Positions 2,160 through 20,272 of a stretch of DNA of 20,272 nt are shown here, one piece after another. The notes beneath the pieces are model-generated. The model made no database searches and was not told the DNA's origin. It was given only the letters and a program-made list of their open reading frames with translations. Source of the stretch: a virus. A program made the position numbers and the translations under genes. The stretch covers positions 1 to 20,272 of IMG/VR virus record IMGVR_UViG_3300027839_001146. One strand, given 5' to 3'. Every line of letters starts with the position of its first letter. Within the stretch, counting starts at the first letter, position 1.

Positions 2160-2470
2160 CGGCCGTCGCCGCGGGCCGCCTTCGAAGGTCATAGCCTCAC
2201 CGGGCTCGGATCACGCCGAAAATCCGTCAGTAAGCGACCACTCATTGACACTGGGCCGCCAATCAGGCATTGAATGGCTCCTGCAGGCCGTGGCAGGCCG
2301 TGGTGGGCCTCATCCATCATGCATCGGAGCCGTGGACGCCGCTTGTTGCCACCCCTGCCCCGCGATCGAAATATGGGACCCCATGCAGGAACGCAGTTTT
2401 GACCATCCCAGTCCCCCCCGGTGGCCGATGGATATACATTAGCGATTATGTTGCGCAACCATTTTTCCGC
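2160..2470. other. non-coding stretch before the methyltransferase
   Basis: No supported gene is present. There is a head-to-tail duplicate of GCAGGCCGTG at 2283-2292 and 2293-2302. The methyltransferase frame is open upstream to 2270, but the residues there do not resemble the family and the natural N-terminus begins at 2507. A 95-codon minus-strand ORF (2189-2476) lacks any supporting evidence. Confidence 0.4.
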
Positions 2471-2501
2471 TTCCATTTATACCATTTATCGAATAACGTC
2501 C
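2471..2501 (+). repeat. left copy of a 31-bp direct repeat bracketing the methyltransferase
   Basis: The unit begins TTCCATTTATACCATTTATC, itself two tandem CCATTTAT blocks. The right copy is at 3545-3575, with 27 of 31 bases the same, and a preceding C is also shared. This copy ends five bases before the methyltransferase ATG. It could be a regulator or promoter element, or a footprint of cassette insertion. Confidence 0.7.
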
Positions 2502-2506
2502 ACGGC

Positions 2507-3535
2507 ATGTCTGCTTATTACAACGAGAACGATCCACACGCTTCCGGGTGGCTGAGGGAACTGATTAGCGCCGGTTTGATAGCACCGGGCGAGGTTGACG
2601 AGCGGTCCATCACGGAGGTTGATCCGAATGACGTCAAGGGATTCACACAGTGCCACTGGTTCGCGGGTATTGGCGGCTGGTCAGCGGCACTTCGACTGGC
2701 AGGATGGTGCGATGACCGAGCAGTGTGGACAGGTTCCTGCCCCTGCCAGCCATTCTCCGCCGCCGGCCGACAGCGAGGGACTTCAGATGCACGGCACCTC
2801 TGGCCAGTCTGGTTCGGCCTCGTCGAAGCCTGCCGCCCGGAGATCATCTTCGGCGAGCAAGTCGCATCCTCAAAAGTTGTCGGCACGCAGCTTGAGGCTT
2901 CTTTCGTTAACGCGGTTCAGCGGGGCGATTACGCCGCCGCCAACAGATACGCAAACCGACTCGTTAAATCGAAATCTCTTGGGGCAGATCGTCGGTGGCT
3001 CGATGGAGTATGTGGAGACCTGGAAGGGGCGGATTACTCCGTGTGGCCGTCGGTACTGGGCGCACACAGCGTCGGGTCGCCGCACATCCGACCGCGATTG
3101 TGGTGGGTCGGAAGCCGGTTGGCCGACTCCCCAGGCCAAAGAGCAAAACGAGACGTCGGAGAAAAAGGTCTCACGAGGAGCACACGCTGGTCTGAATCTG
3201 CGGAACGCTGCGGAGTTGGTGTTTCCAGCGGGCTGGGTGACGCCGTCGGCCAGAGACCACAAGGACACGCCGGGGATGGCGGCGGAGTCAACGAACAACG
3301 ACGGAACGACGCGGCAGCGGGTGGATCAGTTGCCGCGTCAGGTGTATCACCTGCTCCCTGGGATGGAGCCGAGTGGGTCCAATGCCGAGACGGAAAAGCG
3401 AGGCGTCTTGAGCCCGGACTTGAGCCGCTGGTTGATGGGCTACCCGGCCGTGTGGCTCAGTTGCGTGGATTGGGAAACGCTATCGTCCCGCAAGTAGCTG
3501 CGGAGTTCATCAGAGCGTTTATGGAATGTGAGTGA
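2507..3535 (+). CDS. dcm: DNA (cytosine-5) methyltransferase, phage Dcm type, 342 aa
   Basis: This enzyme transfers a methyl group from S-adenosylmethionine to carbon 5 of cytosine in a short DNA site. The start at 2507 gives MSAYYNENDP..AxWLRELI, the usual N-terminus of this phage subfamily, although no clear SD is seen. Motif I is FAGIGG (53-58) and motif IV is GSCPCQPFS with catalytic C80. The motif VI position reads GEQVAS (E117) rather than ENV, motif VIII is HIRPRLWWVG (193-202), and motif X is GLGNAIVPQVAAEF (from 321). Residues about 121-165 and 205-280 are the variable recognition part. All key motifs are intact, so it is probably active. No cognate restriction enzyme is visible, so it is a solitary enzyme that may protect phage DNA. 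A direct repeat flanks the gene on both sides, and a 300-codon ORF overlaps it in the +1 frame. Confidence 0.93.
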   Translation: MSAYYNENDPHASGWLRELISAGLIAPGEVDERSITEVDPNDVKGFTQCHWFAGIGGWSAALRLAGWCDDRAVWTGSCPCQPFSAAGRQRGTSDARHLWPVWFGLVEACRPEIIFGEQVASSKVVGTQLEASFVNAVQRGDYAAANRYANRLVKSKSLGADRRWLDGVCGDLEGADYSVWPSVLGAHSVGSPHIRPRLWWVGSRLADSPGQRAKRDVGEKGLTRSTRWSESAERCGVGVSSGLGDAVGQRPQGHAGDGGGVNEQRRNDAAAGGSVAASGVSPAPWDGAEWVQCRDGKARRLEPGLEPLVDGLPGRVAQLRGLGNAIVPQVAAEFIRAFMECE

Positions 3536-4464: not shown

Positions 4465-4734
4465 ATGTCAGGCCAGAAACGAATCACATCGCCGAAAGCG
4501 GTTAATGAATCCCAACCTGACGTTTACGATGACTCGGTCTACGTGCAAGAACTAAACAATGAATGCGAGCGAGTCCTGATACGAGATTCCGTCGCTCTCG
4601 AGTCCTACAACCACGCAAAGCGTCGGAACCTGCTGGAAAATCTTTGCCTGAAGGCAGCCCTGGTTGCCGTGTCCAACTCGAAGCAAGTGGTCATGACTCG
4701 TCTGGAAGAGGCGATGACCCGACTTCACTCGTGA
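4465..4734 (+). CDS. small helical hypothetical protein, 89 aa
   Basis: The ATG follows the previous stop with no gap, and GGGG lies eight bases upstream. The product starts MSGQKRITSPKAVNES and is then mostly helical (ECERVLIRDSVALESYNHAK...). It is not recognised. It is the last gene of the cassette. Its final 44 bases overlap the 3' end of the recombinase gene on the other strand, so transcripts from the two sides converge and overlap. Confidence 0.6.
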   Translation: MSGQKRITSPKAVNESQPDVYDDSVYVQELNNECERVLIRDSVALESYNHAKRRNLLENLCLKAALVAVSNSKQVVMTRLEEAMTRLHS

Positions 4735-5443
4735 GCATGGACTTGACCTTTTCCGGGTGCCACTTCTTGCCACGGAGTGGGCCGTGCGTTTCAGTCATAA
4801 AATCAGCGATCGCCCTGAGACTGCATCCACTGGCGTGTGCCTCCTTCACGCTTCGGATAGCCATTATCTCGCTTTGGCATTCGATGATCCGCGACTGATC
4901 GTCCGGGTCGATCATCTTGCCGTACGGGATGCGGCTCTTGTGCGTCATTCGCTGTCCGCCTGACTGGCGGTGAAGCATGAGTTCGCTTGTTCGTTCTGAC
5001 GTCTGCCGAGCCTCGAATTCGGAGACTCCTAGCCGGAACGTGATGAACATCCGGCCGAGTGCGGTTGACAGGTCGAGCGAGTTGCCGCCCTCGTTTGCCA
5101 GATGGATCGCCACCTTCTCTCGTTCGAAGTGGTCGATCATTTGCAGGCCGTTGATCGTGTCGCGGAACAGCCGGTCCATTTTTGCGACTACGATATGCTT
5201 CACGGCAGGTCCGATGTTTCTCAGTTCTTTTCCGTGCGTCCGGCTGAAGAGCGGAACTTTCCTGCCTGACTCGTATTCGTCGGACAGTTCATGCGAAACC
5301 GTCAGCCCTTTCATGCGGCAGTAACGGCGGCACGCTTCCAGTTGGCACTGCGTTGTCTCGCGGTCCTCCTGTTTTCCGTTTCCCTTCTTCTTGGGTCGAG
5401 GCGAGAATCTCGTGTAGATGACAGCCAGCATGACGTCACTCAT
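4691..5443 (-). CDS. compact serine recombinase (resolvase/integrase family), 250 aa
   Basis: It catalyses site-specific DNA strand exchange through a serine-DNA bond. The start at 5443 has GGGGAA six bases upstream. The resolvase domain spans about residues 5-155: IYTRFS supplies R12 and nucleophile S14, VAKMDRLFRD supplies R91 and R94, and EFEARQTSERT is the long dimer helix. Residues about 165-240 (IPYGKMIDPDD, then SLRAIADFM, then KWHPEKVKSML) resemble a truncated 'Recombinase' domain with a helix-turn-helix. It is far shorter than phiC31-type integrases and a little longer than Tn3 resolvases. Its position next to the terminase suggests prophage integration or a resolution role; the att or res site is not identified. 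The 3' end overlaps a gene on the other strand. Confidence 0.9.
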   Translation of the reverse strand: MSDVMLAVIYTRFSPRPKKKGNGKQEDRETTQCQLEACRRYCRMKGLTVSHELSDEYESGRKVPLFSRTHGKELRNIGPAVKHIVVAKMDRLFRDTINGLQMIDHFEREKVAIHLANEGGNSLDLSTALGRMFITFRLGVSEFEARQTSERTSELMLHRQSGGQRMTHKSRIPYGKMIDPDDQSRIIECQSEIMAIRSVKEAHASGCSLRAIADFMTETHGPLRGKKWHPEKVKSMLTSEVGSSPLPDES

Positions 5444-6071: not shown

Positions 6072-8090
6072 ATGACAGACAAGCTGCTGATCACGAATCC
6101 CGAAATACTTCGCTGGCACGAAGAGCGGGGACTCGTTCGCTCCGACGTCCGGTCAGCCAGTCGGATCGTGCCGAAGGAGTTGTCCCTCAACCTTCAGTAC
6201 AGGAAGCAGGTTTTGGAGATGGCGTACTCCGATCCCGAGTACGCTCAAGAGCTGATGATTCTGTGTTCTCGTGACATACTCTTCTTCATCAACACGTTTT
6301 GCTGGCTGCTCGAGGCCAGAAAGCCGGGCGACTGGCAGTTGGATTACCGGTACGGTGTCTCAAACGAATTGCCATTCATCACACGTCCGTATCAGGACAA
6401 GGCAATCCTTCGGACTCTGCAGTTCTTGGGCACGCGTGATATCGCCGTCCAGAAGTCTCGCGAAACGGGCGTGACGTGGATCTACATTGTCATCGCGATC
6501 TGGGACTGGCTGTTTCATCCGGACACGAATATCGGATTCGCATCGAAGGACGAGAACTCGGTTGACGACTCAACAGATCCCGACTCCCTGTTCTCGAAGG
6601 TCGACTATCTGGTCGAGCGTCTTCCCGCCTGGATGCGTGGCCAGAAGAACCGCGACTTCACACGCAACCTGACGAAGCACACGATCGTCAATCATAAAAA
6701 CGGCTCATCGATCGCCGGCTACGCATCAACTGCCGACATCGGCCGTGGCGGGCGGAAGTCATGGTTCTTCTTTGACGAGTTCCATTTCTTTCCGGCCGGT
6801 GCCGACTTCGCGTCTCTTGAATCATCGTTCGGAGTTACGAACTGTCGGATCTTCGTGTCGACCATTAACCGACGCCGCGGCGAAGCCGGTTCGTTTATTG
6901 ACCTCATTCGCGGTGATGACCGAAACATCGTCATCATCGATATCGACTGGAAGGACGACGAGGAGAAGCGGGTCGGCCTCTATAAGTCGAACAGGATTGG
7001 ATACACCCAGTCCTTCACGCTGGAGTTGCTGGACAAGAGATTCTGGGAGCCCTTCAAGCGTGATGACGGTAAATACGCGAGCCCGATCCATAAGGACCAA
7101 GCCTACGAATTCGTCCTGGACGGTCGGACTCGGTCGCTTTACTACGACTATCAGTGCGCTCGCGGCGGCGCGACAATGCAGTCGATTTCCGCCGAATTAG
7201 ACAAGGATCCCACAGGCGCCACGTCGCAGGTTTGTGATCCCGAAGTCATCAAGGCTGCGAAGGAGCGAGTCAAGCCAGTCATCCACAAGTTCGAGGTCTA
7301 TCGTGATCCCGACGACGAAAAGAAGTGGATGCTGGACCGACAGATCGAGGGGAACTTGAATCTGTACTTCGAGATGACTGGCGGGCGTCCACCCGAGTCG
7401 CAGTATTCACTGGGTTTCGATATCGCAGCCGGCACGGCTGGTGCCCGGTCGAGTTATTCGGCCATGTGTGCGATTGACAAAGTGACCGGGCAGCAGGTTG
7501 CTGATTGGCGATCTAATTCGATCGAGCCTGCGGAATTTGCCGAATTGGCCATCTGGTTTTGTGAATGGTTCTGGATGGGCTTGCTTATCCCGGAGAGTAA
7601 CGGTCCGCTTGGACAAATGTTCGTGAATCGCGTGCTGAGGGAAGGCTACAAGTACCTGTTTCGCCAGAGATCCATGGAATTCGAGGAAGACAATTCGGCC
7701 TGGTCGGGTACAACAAAGCCTGGATATCGCAACAATGATGGCGGATTGTCACTGCTTCGGGACTTGACGTCTGCCATCCGATTGCGTCAATGCCACATCC
7801 ATTCGCCTTTAATCCTGAAGGAGATGGGGAGATACTTCTTCAAGAATGAAAAGGTTGTTCACTCTTCCGAGCAGAGTGAAACGGATGGCTCTTCGGTCGG
7901 GAAGGCCCATGGTGACCTTGCGATTGCGGGCTGTACGGCCTATCACGGCATGAGTCGCTGGCCGGCATTCGAGGAAGAAAAAGACGAAGACGACGGAATT
8001 CCGCTCGACTCGTTTCTTGCCCGACGAGAAGAGCAGCAGGAAGAGGATCGGCAGTTGGCGCTCACTGATTACTGGTCTCCCTTTGGATAG
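6072..8090 (+). CDS. terL: terminase large subunit (packaging ATPase-nuclease), 672 aa
   Basis: This motor pumps DNA into the prohead and cuts it. The ATPase domain has a Walker-A-like QKSRETGVTW (127-136) and Walker B SWFFFDEF (230-237), followed by a coupling-motif position FVSTINRRRG (261-270). The RNase-H-like nuclease has three acidic positions: D450 in LGFDIAAGT, E508 in IPESNG and D615 in KAHGDLAIAG. All motors and nuclease residues appear intact, and the length is at the upper end for the family because of an acidic C-terminal tail (EEEKDEDDG...). It starts directly after the preceding stop and is followed five bases later by the portal gene. Confidence 0.96.
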   Translation: MTDKLLITNPEILRWHEERGLVRSDVRSASRIVPKELSLNLQYRKQVLEMAYSDPEYAQELMILCSRDILFFINTFCWLLEARKPGDWQLDYRYGVSNELPFITRPYQDKAILRTLQFLGTRDIAVQKSRETGVTWIYIVIAIWDWLFHPDTNIGFASKDENSVDDSTDPDSLFSKVDYLVERLPAWMRGQKNRDFTRNLTKHTIVNHKNGSSIAGYASTADIGRGGRKSWFFFDEFHFFPAGADFASLESSFGVTNCRIFVSTINRRRGEAGSFIDLIRGDDRNIVIIDIDWKDDEEKRVGLYKSNRIGYTQSFTLELLDKRFWEPFKRDDGKYASPIHKDQAYEFVLDGRTRSLYYDYQCARGGATMQSISAELDKDPTGATSQVCDPEVIKAAKERVKPVIHKFEVYRDPDDEKKWMLDRQIEGNLNLYFEMTGGRPPESQYSLGFDIAAGTAGARSSYSAMCAIDKVTGQQVADWRSNSIEPAEFAELAIWFCEWFWMGLLIPESNGPLGQMFVNRVLREGYKYLFRQRSMEFEEDNSAWSGTTKPGYRNNDGGLSLLRDLTSAIRLRQCHIHSPLILKEMGRYFFKNEKVVHSSEQSETDGSSVGKAHGDLAIAGCTAYHGMSRWPAFEEEKDEDDGIPLDSFLARREEQQEEDRQLALTDYWSPFG

Positions 8091-8095
8091 GGATC

Positions 8096-9856
8096 ATGAT
8101 GGATCGACTCAAGTTCAAGCGACTCAAGGATGCCATCACTTTTTCCGGACGGAAGCTCAAGCCGTTCCGGGAAAAGATGCGTGAGGCGCATCGACAGTAT
8201 GTTGGTACGCATTACGGCGACAATGGATCAGAAGGCACACGCCCGCTGAATATGCTGGAAATGGGCGTAACGGCCTACCTCCAACAGCTCGCGTCCCGGA
8301 ATCCCCAGGTCCTTGTCAACACCAGGAAGTCCAGCCTCCGTATCGCGGCTGTGGAATGCGAACACGCCATCAATCAGACCCTGCTCGACATCGACTTCGA
8401 GAACGAATTGAGGAACTGGGTCATGCAGGCCCTGTTCTCCGTCGGGATCATGAAGGTTGGCATACAGGTCGATTACATGGCGGAAATCGACGGTGAGGAG
8501 ATTCCGCATACGAGCGTCTTCGCCGAATCTATTTCACTGGATGATTGGGTTCACGATGTCACTGCTGACAAGTGGGATCCCCAGCGCGTCGGATTCTGTG
8601 GGCATAAGTACCTGATGACGAAGCGGGAACTTTCGTCAAACCCAAACTTCAGCAAGAATCTGACCGCAAAGCTCCAGCCGCGGGACCTGAATGAGCACGA
8701 CGAGATGCTCGGCGAGAGTGATCGACTCGACGAAATCGGATACGGCAAGAAATCGACTGACGGCGAATACCTCGATCGCATCGAACTGTGGGACATCTGG
8801 CTTCCGGAAGACCGGAAGGTCGTGACCATGTCAACCGAACTGAGCGAGCCAGTCCACGAAGTCGAGTGGGAAGGCCCGGATCGTGGTCCTTACCATCTGC
8901 TGGGCTTCAATCCAGTTCTGGCAAATATCATGCCGTTGCCGCCGATCGCGAACTGGATGGATCTTGACGATCTTGAGAATAAGCTGATCAATCACCTTGG
9001 CCGCCAGGCATCCCGCCAGAAGACTGTCACGTTTGTGACACAGCAGGGGCGGAAGGATGGGGAGCGGGTCATCCGAACAAACGACGGGGACACGGTCGTC
9101 GTCGACAATCCGCAGAACATCAAAGAAGCAAGGTACGGAGGCATCGACCAGCAGACCCTCGCGTTCGCGCTGAACGTCAAGGGCCTGACGTCCTACATCA
9201 TGGGGAATCTGGATGCGATGGCCGGCCTGGGATCGTCGGCCGACACACTGGGCCAGGAGAAGATGATCTCGGCGACCGTTTCTGATCGGGTGCGTGCAAT
9301 GCAGGCATCAGTCGTCTCAGCCACCAAAGACGTAATCGAGGACATCGGTTTCTGGCTCTGGAGATCACCGACGACTCAGATCCACATGGCTCGGGATATT
9401 CCCGGAACCGATTTCGCTGTTGACGCGTCGTGGCCGCATGCTGCTGACGAATACGGTGTGGATATGGATCTCCGACAGGGCGATTTCGAAGACTACGATT
9501 TCAACATTGAACAGTTCTCAATGCAGGATCTGAGTCCGCAAATCAGACTCCAAACCCTGCGAGATATCTGGCAGCGTGACATCGTTCCGCTGATCCAGAC
9601 GGGGCTCAAGCCGGACATCAACAAGTACCTGGCACTTGTTGCCAAGTATTCAAACATGCACGAATTGACAGACATTATTCCGGAACTGCAGGCGTATTCC
9701 GACGATCCCCAAAACTCCGGCGGTGGCGGCGGTGGCGGCGGGCCACACGAATACATCCGGCACAACGTCTCCGAAGGTATGACAGCGCAGGCCCAGGAGC
9801 AGCAACAGATGCAGAATCTGATGACAGCGTCTGCTCCGCAACAACAGGCGGGTTAG
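8096..9856 (+). CDS. portal protein, 586 aa
   Basis: The portal forms the dodecameric ring at one head vertex through which TerL drives DNA. Its position directly after TerL, its size, and features such as an N-terminal helical region (FREKMREAHRQYVGTHYG) support this. The central part, ELWDIWLPEDRKVV then PLPPIANWMDLDDL then INHLGRQASRQK, and GLGSSADTLGQEKMISATVS (about 375-400) are typical of P22-like portals. The C-terminal part has a run of eight glycines near residue 545, then a Gln/Met-rich tail. Two adjacent ATGs (8096, 8099) are possible; AGGGA spacing slightly favours 8099. No tail-tube gene lies near enough to decide phage morphology. Confidence 0.9.
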   Translation: MMDRLKFKRLKDAITFSGRKLKPFREKMREAHRQYVGTHYGDNGSEGTRPLNMLEMGVTAYLQQLASRNPQVLVNTRKSSLRIAAVECEHAINQTLLDIDFENELRNWVMQALFSVGIMKVGIQVDYMAEIDGEEIPHTSVFAESISLDDWVHDVTADKWDPQRVGFCGHKYLMTKRELSSNPNFSKNLTAKLQPRDLNEHDEMLGESDRLDEIGYGKKSTDGEYLDRIELWDIWLPEDRKVVTMSTELSEPVHEVEWEGPDRGPYHLLGFNPVLANIMPLPPIANWMDLDDLENKLINHLGRQASRQKTVTFVTQQGRKDGERVIRTNDGDTVVVDNPQNIKEARYGGIDQQTLAFALNVKGLTSYIMGNLDAMAGLGSSADTLGQEKMISATVSDRVRAMQASVVSATKDVIEDIGFWLWRSPTTQIHMARDIPGTDFAVDASWPHAADEYGVDMDLRQGDFEDYDFNIEQFSMQDLSPQIRLQTLRDIWQRDIVPLIQTGLKPDINKYLALVAKYSNMHELTDIIPELQAYSDDPQNSGGGGGGGGPHEYIRHNVSEGMTAQAQEQQQMQNLMTASAPQQQAG

Positions 9857-11469: not shown

Positions 11470-12564
11470 ATGGTTACTGCTCATGACGACATTACCGATC
11501 TGGTAAAAGGCACACTGCGGCATCTCGGCCGCATGAAGTTCCAGCAAATCGCTCAGAACCTCCAGCGATACGAGGTTCTGGGCCGCTGGCTCAAGAAAGA
11601 CAAGGTGGTGTTCGATTCCGGTCGTGGAATCCAACGCAATCTCATGTCGCGTCTGAGCAATACGGCGGCACACGTCGGATTGCTCGAGACCGACGGCTCC
11701 GTCCTGCCCGACTTGATGGAGCAGCTCAACATTCCGTGGCGGCACGCTCAGGTCAACTGGTCGTTTCTGTACCAGACTGACATCCTGATGAATCGCGGTC
11801 CGTCGCTGGTCTACAACGTCGTCAAGCCTCGCCGGGCCGCTGCCCTGATCAACATGGCGGAAGAGCTCGAGGCGAAGGCGTGGTCTGTCCCCGACGTCGA
11901 TAACAAAACCGATCCTTACGGGCTTCCGTACTGGGTGGTCGGCAACGACACGACGGGATTCAATGGCGGTCTTCCGGGTAGTCATACCAAGATCGCTGGT
12001 CTCGACCTGACGACCGATGCGCCGAACTTCAAGAACTACACGGCGCAGTACACGAACGTCGACAAGCCTGACCTGATCAAGAAGATGCGGACCGCTCATC
12101 GCAAGATCGGATTCTATTCTCCGATCGAAGACGACGACTACGCCAAGGCGGCGTTCAGGGACATGCGTGTCTACACCGACGATACTACGGTTTCGGAATT
12201 GGAGGATATCGGCGAGTCGCAGAACGAAAACCTCGGCCGTGACCTTGCTTCGATGGAAGCAGGCGTTCCTAAGGGCGGCGGAAAAGACATCCGCGTGTCC
12301 GATTCTGGCGTCATCATGTTCAAGCGGCATCCCATTATCTGGGTTCCGCAGCTGGACGACACCACGGTCTTTACGGCTGAGACGAATCCGGTTTACATGA
12401 TCAATCACGACACGTTCTATCCCATGTGCCTCAAGGGTGACTTCCTGCGTGAAGGCAGCCCGCGAGAGGTTCCGGATCAGCATAATGCGTGGCGAGTCTT
12501 CGTCGATCTTTCCTACAACTACCTGTGTGTGGATCGCCGACGTAACGCGGTCTTCCGTAAGTAG
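11470..12564 (+). CDS. major capsid protein (HK97-fold type expected), 364 aa
   Basis: This would be the shell subunit. The ATG at 11470 is preferred over an adjacent TTG at 11467; AAGG lies about ten bases upstream. It follows the scaffold gene, has a typical length, and is well balanced in composition. The N-terminal part has an amphipathic region (LGRMKFQQIAQNLQRYEVL). The mid part includes PWRHAQVNWSFLYQTDILMN and YWVVGNDTTGFNGGLPG, and the C-terminal part includes YMINHDTFYPMCLKGDFL and AWRVFVDLSYNYLCVDRR, a late-core pattern I associate with tailed-phage capsids. There is no sign of an N-terminal protease-cleaved delta domain, consistent with a separate scaffold. A strong terminator follows. 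Confidence 0.87.
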   Translation: MVTAHDDITDLVKGTLRHLGRMKFQQIAQNLQRYEVLGRWLKKDKVVFDSGRGIQRNLMSRLSNTAAHVGLLETDGSVLPDLMEQLNIPWRHAQVNWSFLYQTDILMNRGPSLVYNVVKPRRAAALINMAEELEAKAWSVPDVDNKTDPYGLPYWVVGNDTTGFNGGLPGSHTKIAGLDLTTDAPNFKNYTAQYTNVDKPDLIKKMRTAHRKIGFYSPIEDDDYAKAAFRDMRVYTDDTTVSELEDIGESQNENLGRDLASMEAGVPKGGGKDIRVSDSGVIMFKRHPIIWVPQLDDTTVFTAETNPVYMINHDTFYPMCLKGDFLREGSPREVPDQHNAWRVFVDLSYNYLCVDRRRNAVFRK

Positions 12565-13914: not shown

Positions 13915-14619
13915 ATGTCAGTTACTTTTCTGCCAAAGCCTACCCTACAGGAACTTAAGGACGCGAAGAGACAGGAAGAGGGTGCGTCTGATGCCACAAA
14001 GGGCTCGATCGACGGTAAGCCACCTCGCATAAAACATCCGCCGATCGATTCACGGTCGGTCCGGTTTTATCGCGAGATGCTCAAGATCGAGGACAACTGG
14101 CCGCTTCCGGAAGACCTTGCTCGCTTCCATTTGAGAGTCTCCAAACTTCTCGTCAATCACGGCCGGCTGTTGATCGGTGCTGTCGAACACGCATTCATCG
14201 TCACGCTGTTCGAAGAGCTTCAGGGCTTCAAAGCTGAGATCGAAACCGAACTCCGAGAGATAGTTGGTGATGCGATCAGGGATGTCGCAGCCGAGCTGGT
14301 GCCCGGCATCGTGGAATCGCAGGTATCTCCAGCGATCGACAGGATCATGTCACAACCACGGCAGCCGGATCCGGATTCAGAGGATCTCGGCGACGGAGAC
14401 CTGACTGAATTGACCAGCCAATGGGACGCGGTTCCCGAGGGCGCAGCCGTTACGGTCACGGCTGGCGACAAGAAAGCAGCAGGCAAATTCCTTGGACTGA
14501 CCGAGGACCGACGGCTCAAGGTTCGATTGGATGGCGTTACTCGCGGGCACCGAAAATTTGATGCCGATCAGGTATCACTGGTGACCGAAATGGGATCACC
14601 ATTTTCTGAAAGCGAATAA
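13915..14619 (+). CDS. hypothetical virion-operon protein, 234 aa, with a C-terminal SH3-like beta domain
   Basis: AAAGGA lies just upstream of the ATG at 13915. The N-terminus (MSVTFLPKPTLQELKDAKRQ) is charged and probably helical. Residues about 55-145 form a helical domain (FHLRVSKLLVNHGRLLIGAV, then a region with many E/I/V). Residues about 180-225 (AAVTVTAGDKKAAGKFLGLT, then RRLKVRLDGVTRGHRKF and DQVSLV) have the short-strand pattern of an SH3 or KOW-like barrel. I do not recognise the family. It overlaps the next start by one base (TAATG), so it is translationally coupled to the first of the three connector-like genes. Confidence 0.65.
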   Translation: MSVTFLPKPTLQELKDAKRQEEGASDATKGSIDGKPPRIKHPPIDSRSVRFYREMLKIEDNWPLPEDLARFHLRVSKLLVNHGRLLIGAVEHAFIVTLFEELQGFKAEIETELREIVGDAIRDVAAELVPGIVESQVSPAIDRIMSQPRQPDPDSEDLGDGDLTELTSQWDAVPEGAAVTVTAGDKKAAGKFLGLTEDRRLKVRLDGVTRGHRKFDADQVSLVTEMGSPFSESE

Positions 14620-15449
14620 TGCCGCACTCGAACCATCGATCGTTCCGGACGAAGCCGGTTACTCGAGGAACCTACGACTGGTTCCGACAGGAAGCCGGCC
14701 GCGTCATGGGGCTCAGTCCCAACCAGATCACTCTCTCAACCGACGAAGAGCGTGACGTTGACGAGTGTGTCGCGCGAGGCGAACGCGATTTCTATACGCC
14801 GTCGATGCCGGACATCCCTCCACATCGATGGTCTTTCCTGACAATCGCATTCAGCATGCCGATCAACGCGAACCAGACGGACTATCTGCTTCCCCAGTCC
14901 GATTTCGGCGGCATCAGCGGCGATTTGACCTATGCCGCCGCGGACAACAAATACACTGGCCTTCGACACGTCACTGCAGAGAAGATCGACGAGCTGCGAT
15001 CGCTCAATACGACCAACAGCAGTCACCCGACCCGCTACGCACTCCGCATGTCCCAGCACGGCGGAGTCACTCGCCAGCAGTGGACCATGTCGTTCTGGCC
15101 CGATCCTGACGCTTCATACACAGTCAAGGGCAGCTACGACGTCAGTCCTGTTTTGATGAGTGAGGATCGACAGTACCCGTACGGCGGGGCCCAGTTCGAG
15201 AATCTTCTGCTGTACTGCGTTCTGGCCCAGGCGGAACTCTACAACGAAAAGTCAAAGTCCAAGAGGTTCCAGCAGGAACGCGACCGGCAGATGGTCGCAG
15301 CGATCGGGATGAACAACGGACAGAACCAGCCAGACATCCTTGGCTACAACGGCAACGCGACATTCGGCGGTGGCGGACGACTCCGCGACATCGAGATTCG
15401 TGACGGACGGTACTTCGAGAACTTCAGTCCTCTGACATTGGACACGTAA
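14619..15449 (+). CDS. putative head-tail adaptor/connector protein, paralogue A, 276 aa
   Basis: This is the first of three tandem related genes. Shared landmarks are an opening RGTYDWFRQEAGRVMGL, an acidic helix (DVDECVARGERDFYTP), RWSFLTIAF, then TDYLLPQSDFGG followed by SGDLTY, and a QQWTMSFWPDPDASYTVKG strand pair. Near the C-terminus is YPYGG followed by a long helix containing LLLYCVLAQAELYNEK. Compared with its partners it has an extra C-terminal 50-60 residues rich in glycine and charged residues (GYNGNATFGGGG...). The placement after the capsid region and the helix-plus-beta pattern suggest a head completion or tail-adaptor protein that joins the portal to the tail. No direct family name is recognised. 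Confidence 0.65.
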   Translation: MPHSNHRSFRTKPVTRGTYDWFRQEAGRVMGLSPNQITLSTDEERDVDECVARGERDFYTPSMPDIPPHRWSFLTIAFSMPINANQTDYLLPQSDFGGISGDLTYAAADNKYTGLRHVTAEKIDELRSLNTTNSSHPTRYALRMSQHGGVTRQQWTMSFWPDPDASYTVKGSYDVSPVLMSEDRQYPYGGAQFENLLLYCVLAQAELYNEKSKSKRFQQERDRQMVAAIGMNNGQNQPDILGYNGNATFGGGGRLRDIEIRDGRYFENFSPLTLDT

Positions 15450-16142
15450 ATGTCTCTGGAAGTGACATACGCCACATTGAGAGGCGAAATCGGCCGATTC
15501 CTTGGCTACGGGAGAGCGACCACAACCTGGTCGACCGATCAGGCTTCCGATATTGATGACGTTCTTGGGTCAGGTCTTCGTCGATTCTATTACCCGCTGC
15601 TTCCAAAACCCGACGTTACCGGACAGCCGGACATCTATTGCTGGTCGTTCTTGAACCAAATCGCATTCATTGACCTGGTGCAGGCCAAAACGGACTACGA
15701 TCTCCCTGACGATTTTGGCGGAAATCTCTCAGACGGATTCACGTTCGCCGAGAACAGTGGCGAGAATTCGATCACTGAAGTGGACGAGGTTTGCATCCGA
15801 CGTCGGCTGGAGAACACGACGACGCAGGGTACGCCGTCATACTTCTGCGTTCGGCCTCGGCGTAAATCAGCAGCCGATCGGCAGCTCTGGGAAGCCGTCT
15901 TCCACCAGGTGCCTGACACTTCATACACGGTCACGTACCGGTATTCGATCGAGCCCCAGATCGTCGGAACAGGAAACACGAAGCCACATGGCGGCGTGAT
16001 TCACGCTGAGACAATTCGGGAAGCCTGTCTGGCCGTGGCGGAAGAAATACTGGATGATGAGCCTGGGGTTCATGCACAGCGGTTCGAGAAACAATTGATG
16101 TCGTCCATGCTCACCGATAAGAGGATGAGCATCAGTTACTAA
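15450..16142 (+). CDS. putative head-tail adaptor/connector protein, paralogue B, 230 aa
   Basis: It starts directly after the stop of paralogue A. The order of features matches: VTYATLRGEIGRFLGYG, then SDIDDVLGSGLRRFYYP, CWSFLNQIAF, then DYDLPDDFGGNLSDGFTF, PSYFCVRPRRK, then DTSYTVTYRYSIEP. It ends with KPHGGVIHAETIREACLAVA, and a short tail follows. It is the shortest of the three. The DFGG and W-[SA]-F-L positions are the clearest common motifs. A role like its neighbours is expected; with three different copies, each could take a separate position or act at a different assembly stage. This is inference. Confidence 0.65.
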   Translation: MSLEVTYATLRGEIGRFLGYGRATTTWSTDQASDIDDVLGSGLRRFYYPLLPKPDVTGQPDIYCWSFLNQIAFIDLVQAKTDYDLPDDFGGNLSDGFTFAENSGENSITEVDEVCIRRRLENTTTQGTPSYFCVRPRRKSAADRQLWEAVFHQVPDTSYTVTYRYSIEPQIVGTGNTKPHGGVIHAETIREACLAVAEEILDDEPGVHAQRFEKQLMSSMLTDKRMSISY

Positions 16143-16162
16143 GCACGAAACGGAGAGAAACC

Positions 16163-16948
16163 ATGGCAGGCGGAACATATCCAGTAACGGCGCCAACACG
16201 CGGGACATACGAGTGGTTTCAGTTGAGGATCGGATTATTCCTTCGCAATGAGCTGGGCGAGCCTTCGCTGGGAACGAATGCCGACCCAGCCATCTGGGAC
16301 GATTATCAGGTGGGTGTGGTTGACGAGATCATCCAGGAAGGCGCTCTCCAGTTCTATTTCCCGCCATTAGTGATGGGGCAGAAAATCCCCTACACCTGGG
16401 CGTTCCTCATGATCGAGGATACGGTCGCTACGGCGAGCTCTGATTTCGATTACGATCTGGACGCCGATTGCGGCGGCATCGCCGAAGATTTCGTCTTCAC
16501 CAGCGGTGAAGACAAGCGTAAGCCCAAGCTCGTGTCCGCCGAAGAGGTCATGTCGATGCGAGGCCAGGCGGCAGATACCGGCACGCCCGAATACATCGCC
16601 ATTCGCCCGAAGACCTCAACTGGCTCGGCGGTGCAGACTTACGAGGCCATTGTCTACCCGACGCCAACTGCTGTTGAAACTCTGAACTATCGCTTCCTGA
16701 AGATCCCGCCGTTGCTCACAACGACGAACAACTTCCCGTACGGAACGGTCACACACGCGAATACGATCGCAGCGTCGTGTTTGTCTGTCGCGGAAGCATT
16801 GATTCGTGGAACTCAAGGCCCTATGCACCAGCGTTTCATGCAATGCCTGCAGGCGAGCGTGATGAGCGACATGCGAAGTAATCGAATAACTGCCAATCAG
16901 GTTGGCGATTTGATGGACCTGCGAGACAGGGGAATGCAACCACAATAG
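16163..16948 (+). CDS. putative head-tail adaptor/connector protein, paralogue C, 261 aa
   Basis: GGAGAG lies six bases upstream. It carries the same ordered landmarks: RGTYEWFQLRIGLFLRN, an acidic helix ending in ALQFYFPP, TWAFLMIEDTV, then FDYDLDADCGGIAEDFVF (CGG in place of FGG), PEYIAIRPK, and NFPYGTVTHANTIAASCLS. A C-terminal helix (QRFMQCLQASVMSDMRSNRI) follows. It is closest to A at the N-terminus (RGTY[DE]WF), while its PEYIAIRPK matches PSYFCVRPR of B. This suggests old duplication rather than a recent copy. It is followed 11 bases later by a coiled-coil gene. Confidence 0.65.
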   Translation: MAGGTYPVTAPTRGTYEWFQLRIGLFLRNELGEPSLGTNADPAIWDDYQVGVVDEIIQEGALQFYFPPLVMGQKIPYTWAFLMIEDTVATASSDFDYDLDADCGGIAEDFVFTSGEDKRKPKLVSAEEVMSMRGQAADTGTPEYIAIRPKTSTGSAVQTYEAIVYPTPTAVETLNYRFLKIPPLLTTTNNFPYGTVTHANTIAASCLSVAEALIRGTQGPMHQRFMQCLQASVMSDMRSNRITANQVGDLMDLRDRGMQPQ

Positions 16949-18629: not shown

Positions 18630-19367
18630 ATGTTCCCTGATCGCTTCACACACGTGCCCGTGTCTTTCGTGTCACAGTCGGCCGCGTATACAGCGAAGCC
18701 GTTCGAGTATGTGCTCCTCACGGCAACGGCAGCCGACTACACGCTTACGCTCCCGACGTCTCCGACCGTGAACGACGTTGTGTCGATGTCAGCTACCAGC
18801 ATCACGGGTGGCTTCAAGGTCACGGTCACGGGCACCACGAAGAACATCCTACTGCGTGAGGGATCGGCGACATCCTTCAAATTATTCATCACCAATGACC
18901 ACATGGACCTGAAATACAACGGCACGGCGTGGGAAGTGACGAATGACGGCAGAAAGAAGCATGTAGGCGTCATGAGGAACAGCGTGGCCCAGACTATCAG
19001 TAATGGAGTATTTACGGTTCTTGGATATGACACTCTTGTAGTTGACCACGGAGGAATTGCTACCATTGCAGATGAGCGTATTACGGCGCTAAGAGACGGT
19101 AGCTATAACTATAGAGCACAGTCCATTCCGGAAAATACAACCCTTGCTGCCTCAGACAGAATAGTAACGAGGTTATACAAGAATGGATCTCACTTCCAGG
19201 CAGGGGAGCAAGATGAGGATTCTTCGGGAGATAGGCATACGACGGTTGCTGCGGGAATAATAGAGTTGTTAGCGGGGAATTACATTGATGCGAGAATCTA
19301 CTACTTGACAGGGGGAAATTGCGATACGGAAGCGAACTACTCACATTTCCAGGTCTTCGAGACTTAG
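18630..19367 (+). CDS. tail fibre / receptor-binding-like protein with C1q-like C-terminus, 245 aa
   Basis: GAGG lies five bases upstream. The N-terminal half (to about residue 110) has FEYVLLTATAADYTLTLPTS and MDLKYNGTAWEVTNDG, a common layout of appendage proteins with a short trunk. The C-terminal half has SNGVFTVLGYDTLVVDHGG, then DGSYNYRAQSIPEN, RIVTRLYKNGSHFQ, and ends in SHFQVFET, which resembles C1q/TNF-like jelly-roll receptor-binding domains. From about 18960 the DNA becomes AT-richer (about 42% GC by count in sampled stretches, versus about 60% in upstream genes) and uses AGA and ATA codons. This suggests the binding domain was exchanged by recombination. The stop is followed two bases later by the next ATG. 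Confidence 0.75.
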   Translation: MFPDRFTHVPVSFVSQSAAYTAKPFEYVLLTATAADYTLTLPTSPTVNDVVSMSATSITGGFKVTVTGTTKNILLREGSATSFKLFITNDHMDLKYNGTAWEVTNDGRKKHVGVMRNSVAQTISNGVFTVLGYDTLVVDHGGIATIADERITALRDGSYNYRAQSIPENTTLAASDRIVTRLYKNGSHFQAGEQDEDSSGDRHTTVAAGIIELLAGNYIDARIYYLTGGNCDTEANYSHFQVFET

Positions 19368-19369
19368 TA

Positions 19370-19795
19370 ATGGCTAGCATTAAAATACCAATCGCTGCAA
19401 ACGCATCTGCAATTATAGAAGCAGCAGGCGGGATTACTGGTGTTGAAAGTGATTCTTATGTACACCATAGCATTCTGCATTGTCCCGATGTATCCCAGGA
19501 AACCTTGGATGCAGTAGTCACCGCCTACGACCACGAAGCATATCTGCGTGATCAGGCATTAGCACAACTCATCAAAAGCAAGCAACAGCAGGCCAGTGAG
19601 GAAATACTCAAACTGGCACCAGAATGGAAACAGAGAAACATACTTGCTCAATCTCTTATTCTGATTGCCACACAACTCAATATATTGGATTCTCCCGAAT
19701 CTTCAGAGATGCGTGATCTATGGAATAAGATCGACAAGATTCGCAAAGACAGTAACGATACGCCCATAACGGAAGACGACAAGAAGAAGGAGTAA
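19370..19795 (+). CDS. helical accessory protein downstream of the fibre gene, 141 aa
   Basis: The ATG at 19370 is two bases after the fibre stop; no clear SD, so translation may be coupled. After MASIKIPIAANASAIIEAAG the protein is mostly helical and charged (YLRDQALAQLIKSKQQQASE, then EILKLAPEWKQRNILAQSLI) with an acidic/lysine C-terminus. It shares the AT-rich composition of the fibre's C-terminal half, so both probably moved as one module. Small helical proteins just after a fibre gene are often fibre chaperones or assembly factors; here that is inference from position. Confidence 0.65.
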   Translation: MASIKIPIAANASAIIEAAGGITGVESDSYVHHSILHCPDVSQETLDAVVTAYDHEAYLRDQALAQLIKSKQQQASEEILKLAPEWKQRNILAQSLILIATQLNILDSPESSEMRDLWNKIDKIRKDSNDTPITEDDKKKE

Positions 19796-19798
19796 GCC

Positions 19799-20272
19799 GT
19801 GGCGGCTATTGAGCAACTTGACACCGAGAATGCGGACCGCAACCTGACGTCGCAGGTGACCGTGCTTACGGACACTCCCGATGTTTCCGGCGCACGGCTG
19901 TGTCAGGTGTCTATCCAGCTCGGCGATGGAGTGAACAACCTTGACGGTACTGGCGGTACGTTCGAACTTGAGATTCTCGTTGACGGCAACACTATCAATG
20001 GTGGTGTGGAGTACCAGAACGTCGGCACCAAGGTGCGTACGAGTCTGCAAAGCCAGTCATTCATTTGCCCGCCTAACATGGAAGTGGTCGTCAAGCTAAA
20101 GTCACCAAATTCGGCTGACACGGGAGTGGACGTCACAGCCTATTTGTACGACGTCGGTCCTTCAGTGGTGAGTGCGGACCTGCCAGCGAACTTTGCAGCG
20201 ACTGTTATCACGGCTGGCGGCGCTGTTGACTCGCTGATTCAGGGATTCCTGAACGACACGATCGCCGAGACC
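19799..20272 (+). CDS. virion protein, partial (3' end beyond the window), at least 158 aa
   Basis: The start is GTG at 19799, with AAGGAG eight bases upstream, inside the end of the previous gene. No in-frame stop occurs before the edge. The product starts MAAIEQLDTENADRNLTSQV. It continues as a beta-type domain (QVSIQLGDGVNNLDGTGGTF, then FELEILVDGNTINGG and MEVVVKLKSPNSADTG) and a later segment, SADLPANFAATVITAGGAVD. Composition is back to the GC-rich type of the earlier late genes, so the AT-rich module ends between about 19795 and this gene. It is a probable virion surface protein; function is unknown. Confidence 0.75.
   Translation, partial: MAAIEQLDTENADRNLTSQVTVLTDTPDVSGARLCQVSIQLGDGVNNLDGTGGTFELEILVDGNTINGGVEYQNVGTKVRTSLQSQSFICPPNMEVVVKLKSPNSADTGVDVTAYLYDVGPSVVSADLPANFAATVITAGGAVDSLIQGFLNDTIAET

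What the first reader, a model, noticed from the sequence alone, without database searches (positions are those of the whole stretch)
14619..16948. Three tandem paralogous connector-like genes
The three products share the same order of motifs: (R)GTY.WF-type opening, W[SA]FL, DY.L...GG, and a C-terminal [YH]G...-plus-helix. They nevertheless diverge widely, and C has CGG for FGG. Tailed phages usually need one adaptor gene of each kind. A triplicated set could give a hetero-oligomeric or stacked connector ring, which would be a distinct neck design.
Basis: partly seen in the sequence, partly recalled or inferred. Interest (0 to 1): 0.65.

Follow-up and report, generated by a model that had tools for sequence, protein, structure and literature searches.

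The report
Stacked adaptor rings in uncultured phages
Three neighbouring genes of an uncultured phage are old, diverged copies of the single ring protein that normally joins a phage's head to its tail; related viruses carry two, three or (fused into one giant protein) seven copies, which suggests a neck or tail built by stacking rings.

Summary
The three genes are homologues (pairwise BLASTP 3e-19 to 2e-35) of the SU10/T7-type portal adaptor: B passes Pfam SU10_adaptor and gene A's AlphaFold model matches solved podovirus adaptors (Z 12-13). They are not a fresh triplication. A census of about 88 IMG/VR records that carry the domain found mostly one copy, but 11 viruses of this lineage have several: two genes (seven viruses), a fused pair (one), three genes (the window), a fused triple (one) and a 1686-aa ORF with seven tandem adaptor domains (the sister virus, TerL 55%, MCP 70%). 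One pattern holds in all 11: exactly one copy keeps the C-terminal tail that, by position, is SU10's portal-gripping embracing loop; a different copy keeps the ordinary N-terminus without a tail. Single-copy adaptors have both in one chain. Best reading: the adaptor's portal face and distal face were split between rings, giving a stack (A next to the portal, B and C further out), as in crAss001, whose barrel is five stacked dodecamers of four paralogues. Stacking, order and stoichiometry are inferred. A mixed 12-mer is disfavoured but not excluded. New variant of a known kind; the seven-domain fused chain has no match in the papers or annotated phages searched.

The parts
14619..15449 (+). Gene A (276 aa): tail-bearing adaptor, proposed portal-proximal ring
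   Evidence: AlphaFold pLDDT 83.2, pTM 0.74; matches podovirus adaptors 9k09_d, 8zkk_B, 9nwi_A, 7z47 with Z 12-13; groups with C-type and single adaptors
15324..15446 (+). C-terminal tail of A (residues 236-276, ...QPDILGYNGN...FENFSPLTLDT); by position the SU10 'embracing loop' that binds the portal
   Evidence: Present in single-copy adaptors of the lineage and in exactly one copy of each multi-copy genome; low pLDDT without a partner; SU10 paper
15450..16142 (+). Gene B (230 aa): ordinary N-terminus, no tail; proposed second ring
   Evidence: Pfam SU10_adaptor 2.6e-8, 35 bits against cut-off 27; groups with tail-less N-type copies of the other multi-copy viruses, support 94/96
15447..15452 (+). 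A/B junction TAA|ATG, same frame, zero spacing
   Evidence: Sequence; A and B are in one frame with no bases between stop and start, the arrangement that is continuous in the fused relatives
16163..16948 (+). Gene C (261 aa): derived GTYEWF N-terminus, no LGYN tail; proposed additional ring
   Evidence: SU10_adaptor 2.3e-4, below cut-off; place in tree unresolved
13915..14619 (+). Small gene directly upstream of A (its stop overlaps A's ATG); a homologue follows the capsid genes in the sister virus
6072..8090 (+). Terminase large subunit
   Evidence: PHROG 5989 2.8e-21
8096..9856 (+). Portal protein (PHROG named head-tail adaptor)
   Evidence: phrog_332 9e-5
11473..12564 (+). Major capsid protein
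   Evidence: phrog_9953 0.0016; 70% identical to the sister's

Best explanation
A, B and C are three ring-forming adaptors of the SU10/T7 type, and they most likely form three coaxial dodecameric rings stacked between portal and tail tip. A keeps the C-terminal tail and so sits against the portal, threading its tail between portal clip domains. B, which keeps the ordinary N-terminal end but has no tail, and C form the further rings that lengthen the barrel. The sister virus does the same with one polypeptide: twelve copies of its seven-domain chain would give seven rings, domain 7 at the portal and domain 1 at the far end. Shown: homology, the fold of A, copy numbers, and the split of tail and N-terminus between copies. 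Inferred: dodecamers, stacking, order, and lengths of about 14 nm for three rings and 32 nm for seven, taking phicrAss001's 23 nm for five rings.
For: Homology and fold. In 11 of 11 multi-copy viruses exactly one copy has the tail, and another has the ordinary N-terminus without it; single-copy relatives have both in one chain. Tail-less N-type copies form one group, and most tail copies group with ordinary adaptors. SU10: the C-terminal embracing loop grips the portal, and the helix bundle meets the nozzle (PMC9509320). Precedent: phicrAss001 barrel of five stacked dodecamers from four paralogues (PMC10172136), whose chains are also found by Foldseek from gene A. Seven domains do not divide into a 12-mer, but twelve chains give seven full rings and twelve tails. 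Relatives of both copy types have dN about 0.3-0.4 against saturated dS.
Against: No oligomer was modelled or seen. The tail is equated with the embracing loop by position only; AlphaFold leaves it disordered. The tandem two-domain model has pTM 0.48, so the domain arrangement is not predicted with confidence. The nozzle-like gene could not be confirmed by profile. C's place in the tree is unresolved, and ring order beyond A is a guess. One fused pair (L178) has a weaker tail and an ordinary-looking second N-terminus.
Confidence: 0.6

Rival explanations
1. One mixed dodecameric ring: A, B and C alternate (4+4+4) in a single adaptor ring, the paralogues replacing the two conformers that one SU10 chain adopts when docking fibres and a six-fold nozzle.
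For: In SU10 neighbouring adaptors of one ring differ in structure for fibre docking; three divides twelve.
Against: Only one copy per genome keeps the portal-binding tail; seven fused domains cannot tile a 12-mer; two-gene viruses split N-terminus and tail rather than two fibre-dock variants.
Confidence: 0.15
2. A alone is the adaptor ring; B and C (and domains 1-6 of the fused chain) are peripheral parts, such as collar or fibre-docking subunits hanging from the ring.
For: Some relatives fuse adaptors to other segments: an extra N-terminal domain in L031/L020/L021 and a C-terminal extension in L178. The R6-R7 model gives no confident packing.
Against: B and C align with the whole two-part adaptor fold, including the helices of the helix bundle; phicrAss001 shows that paralogues of this fold stack.
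Confidence: 0.15
3. The extra copies are redundant relics, or alternatives used one at a time (for example host-range variants), with no joint structure.
For: Copy number changes between close relatives: singles L107/L148 lie next to the fused triple L113.
Against: All frames are intact; dN about 0.3-0.4 against saturated dS in both copy types; the complementary loss of tail and N-terminus means that no copy of a multi-copy virus has both ends of an ordinary adaptor.
Confidence: 0.07

Closest known systems
SU10 adaptor gp11 (Pfam PF24175; PDB 7z47)
   Same: Fold (Z 12.3 over 208 residues), profile match (E 4.9e-6), C-terminal tail in A by position
   Different: SU10 has one adaptor and one ring; here three diverged paralogues, two without the tail
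phicrAss001 ring proteins R1-R4 (PDB 7qog, 7qoj)
   Same: Several paralogous adaptor-fold ring proteins per genome, low mutual identity (15-31% there, 26-33% here); Foldseek match from A (E 2.4e-4)
   Different: No sequence-profile match seen; phicrAss001 uses separate genes, whereas relatives here fuse two, three or seven domains in one chain
T7 gp11 / KP32 TTPA adaptors
   Same: Fold (Z 8-9)
   Different: One adaptor protein and one ring; no sequence match to the profiles used here

Membership tests
SU10-type adaptor (PF24175) | Sequence match above the curated cut-off | tested here: met
   B 35 bits against 27; C 22.1 and A none on their own, but 26 of 29 aligned relatives match at E <= 0.01 and A is their homologue
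SU10-type adaptor (PF24175) | Helix bundle plus beta-sandwich adaptor fold | tested here: met
   Gene A model: Foldseek 7z47_B 1.1e-6, Z 12.3 to 7z47_A; B and C by homology only
SU10-type adaptor (PF24175) | C-terminal embracing loop that grips the portal | tested here: inconclusive
   Tail present in A by position, absent in B and C; contact with the portal not testable
SU10-type adaptor (PF24175) | Dodecameric ring on the portal | not testable with these tools
   No oligomer prediction or virion data
Crassvirus ring-protein set | Several paralogous adaptor-fold genes in one genome | tested here: met
   Three in the window; two to seven copies in ten relatives
Crassvirus ring-protein set | Sequence relation to R1-R4 / membership of Crassvirales | tested here: inconclusive
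   Profile search of PDB sequences listed the SU10 adaptor, no crAss001 chain; fold similarity only
Crassvirus ring-protein set | Rings stacked into a barrel | not testable with these tools
   Needs structure determination

The most novel reading that the evidence does not exclude
A phage lineage that builds a tail barrel of adjustable length by multiplying one adaptor domain, in the extreme case as a single seven-domain polypeptide whose twelve copies would each span the whole seven-ring stack, so that gene length sets barrel length.
Probability: 0.4. Interest if true: 0.82.

Novelty: new variant of a known kind. Interest (0 to 1): 0.62.

Why it matters
It points to a second phage lineage, besides crassviruses, that multiplies adaptor rings, with copy numbers 1, 2, 3 and 7 among close relatives and both separate and fused forms. 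That makes a natural series for asking how short tails become longer, how one protein's two binding faces are divided between duplicates, and whether repeat number sets neck length.

Tried and rejected
Assembly artefact for the seven-domain ORF: rejected, since the longest exact repeat in the array is 29 nt, repeats are 42-71% identical in DNA, and two assemblies differ at one of 5061 bases. Recent triplication: rejected (26-33% identity; A+B+C as one clade disfavoured, p-AU 0.025 and 0.037). All tail and middle copies plus domain 1 as one clade: disfavoured (p-AU 0.038). Profiles of the three window proteins alone, of the B-type family and of the A-type family gave no trustworthy PDB sequence match; only the wider alignment did. 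Annotated phages: no tblastn match for B, the portal, the seven-domain chain or a single-copy relative. Bacterial genome contigs: none, so no host. The nozzle-like gene was not confirmed by PHROG, Pfam or PDB profiles.

Full report
What is there. The window is a 20,272-base IMG/VR virus record. It runs terminase, portal, scaffold-like gene, capsid protein, two further genes, then the three genes of the finding. A near-identical contig of 31,213 bases extends it through a 1890-aa repeat protein to an 883-aa nozzle-like gene. The three products are homologous over about 220 residues.

What they are. Gene B passes Pfam's SU10_adaptor cut-off and C matches below it. A profile of 29 relatives finds the solved SU10 adaptor among PDB sequences (7z47, E 4.9e-6). 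The AlphaFold model of A (pLDDT 83.2, pTM 0.74) matches portal-tail adaptors of cyanophage A4, VP1, Pa223 and SU10 (Z 13.4 to 12.3) and, lower down, T7 and phicrAss001 ring proteins. So all three are portal adaptors of the T7/SU10 type. Middling Z values are common, but the best-ranked entries here are nearly all phage adaptors and they agree with the sequence match.

Relatives. The sister virus (TerL 55%, portal 53%, capsid protein 70% identical) has one 1686-aa open frame with seven tandem adaptor domains. Domains 1-4 have a period of exactly 714 bases; domains 2-6 are 60-74% identical to each other and domain 7 about 40% to them. The longest exact repeat is 29 bases, so short-read misassembly is unlikely. 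Whole-record searches with the adaptor profile hit 31, 10 and 47 records; ORFs were then inspected. Eleven viruses have several copies: the window (three genes), its sister (seven fused), L113 (three fused), L178 (two fused), and L110, L155/156, L157, L158, L165, L180 and L209 (two genes). The remainder show one copy, though many records are fragments and can hide copies.

The pattern. Nearly all single-copy adaptors of this lineage carry an ordinary N-terminus (xES[TS]LS[VI]...) and a C-terminal tail (LGYNxD...TYNG). In all eleven multi-copy viruses these are split: exactly one copy has the tail and a different one has the ordinary N-terminus without a tail; further copies have neither. Eight of the eleven tail copies open with G[TS][FY]x[WF][FY], seen in no N-type or single copy tested. 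In the window A has the tail, B the ordinary start, C neither. L178's second domain is the least clear case.

History. In the best tree the tail-less N-type copies, with the sister's domains 1, 2, 4 and 6, form one group (94/96, not starred), while many tail copies group with single adaptors of related viruses (winA with four C copies 96/87; with R7, L106 and L167 100/97; L113 D3 with L107 99/90). An early gain of a second ring gene with later losses and expansions fits; transfers are not excluded. On the capsid-protein tree multi-copy viruses cluster but are interleaved with single-copy ones.

How it may work. In SU10 a dodecamer of one adaptor joins portal and nozzle, and the C-terminal embracing loop is wedged between portal clip domains (PMC9509320). 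In phicrAss001 four paralogous ring proteins form five stacked dodecamers, a barrel of about 23 nm (PMC10172136). With only one tail copy per genome, the simplest arrangement is that this copy forms the ring on the portal and the others stack below it. For the fused chain twelve copies give twelve tails and seven rings. All of this paragraph beyond the cited structures is inference; the tandem model (pTM 0.48) does not test it.

Novelty. Multi-ring necks are known from crassviruses. Their apparent occurrence in this lineage, the tail/N-terminus split, and tandem fusion up to seven domains were not found in the literature searched, which holds only open-licence papers. BFVD holds a few longer chains that align over both tandem domains; these were not examined and may be further fused adaptors.

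Noticed in passing
   Followed up: yes
L031:17996-19096, L014, L020, L021: Single-copy adaptors with an extra N-terminal domain of about 80 residues (FTFGLVNKSTGAAL...), perhaps an appendage-type domain fused to the adaptor.
   Followed up: no
L178:5936-7870: Fused pair of adaptor domains followed by a C-terminal extension of about 150 residues.
   Followed up: no
L165:4038-5480; L113:7965-8939; L157:12846-13760: Tail-less N-type adaptors with inserts of about 70-200 residues in the N-terminal helices or the beta-sandwich.
   Followed up: no
window 19319-20272 and L054:6243-11915: A 1890-aa protein of degenerate repeats (VWDE...GSFG...VDT) starts at the window's right end; in the sister the similar repeat protein lies before the adaptor ORF.
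   Followed up: no
window 2270-3535 (+) and 4691-5443 (-): C-5 cytosine DNA methyltransferase and a serine recombinase/resolvase, the latter on the minus strand.
   Followed up: partly
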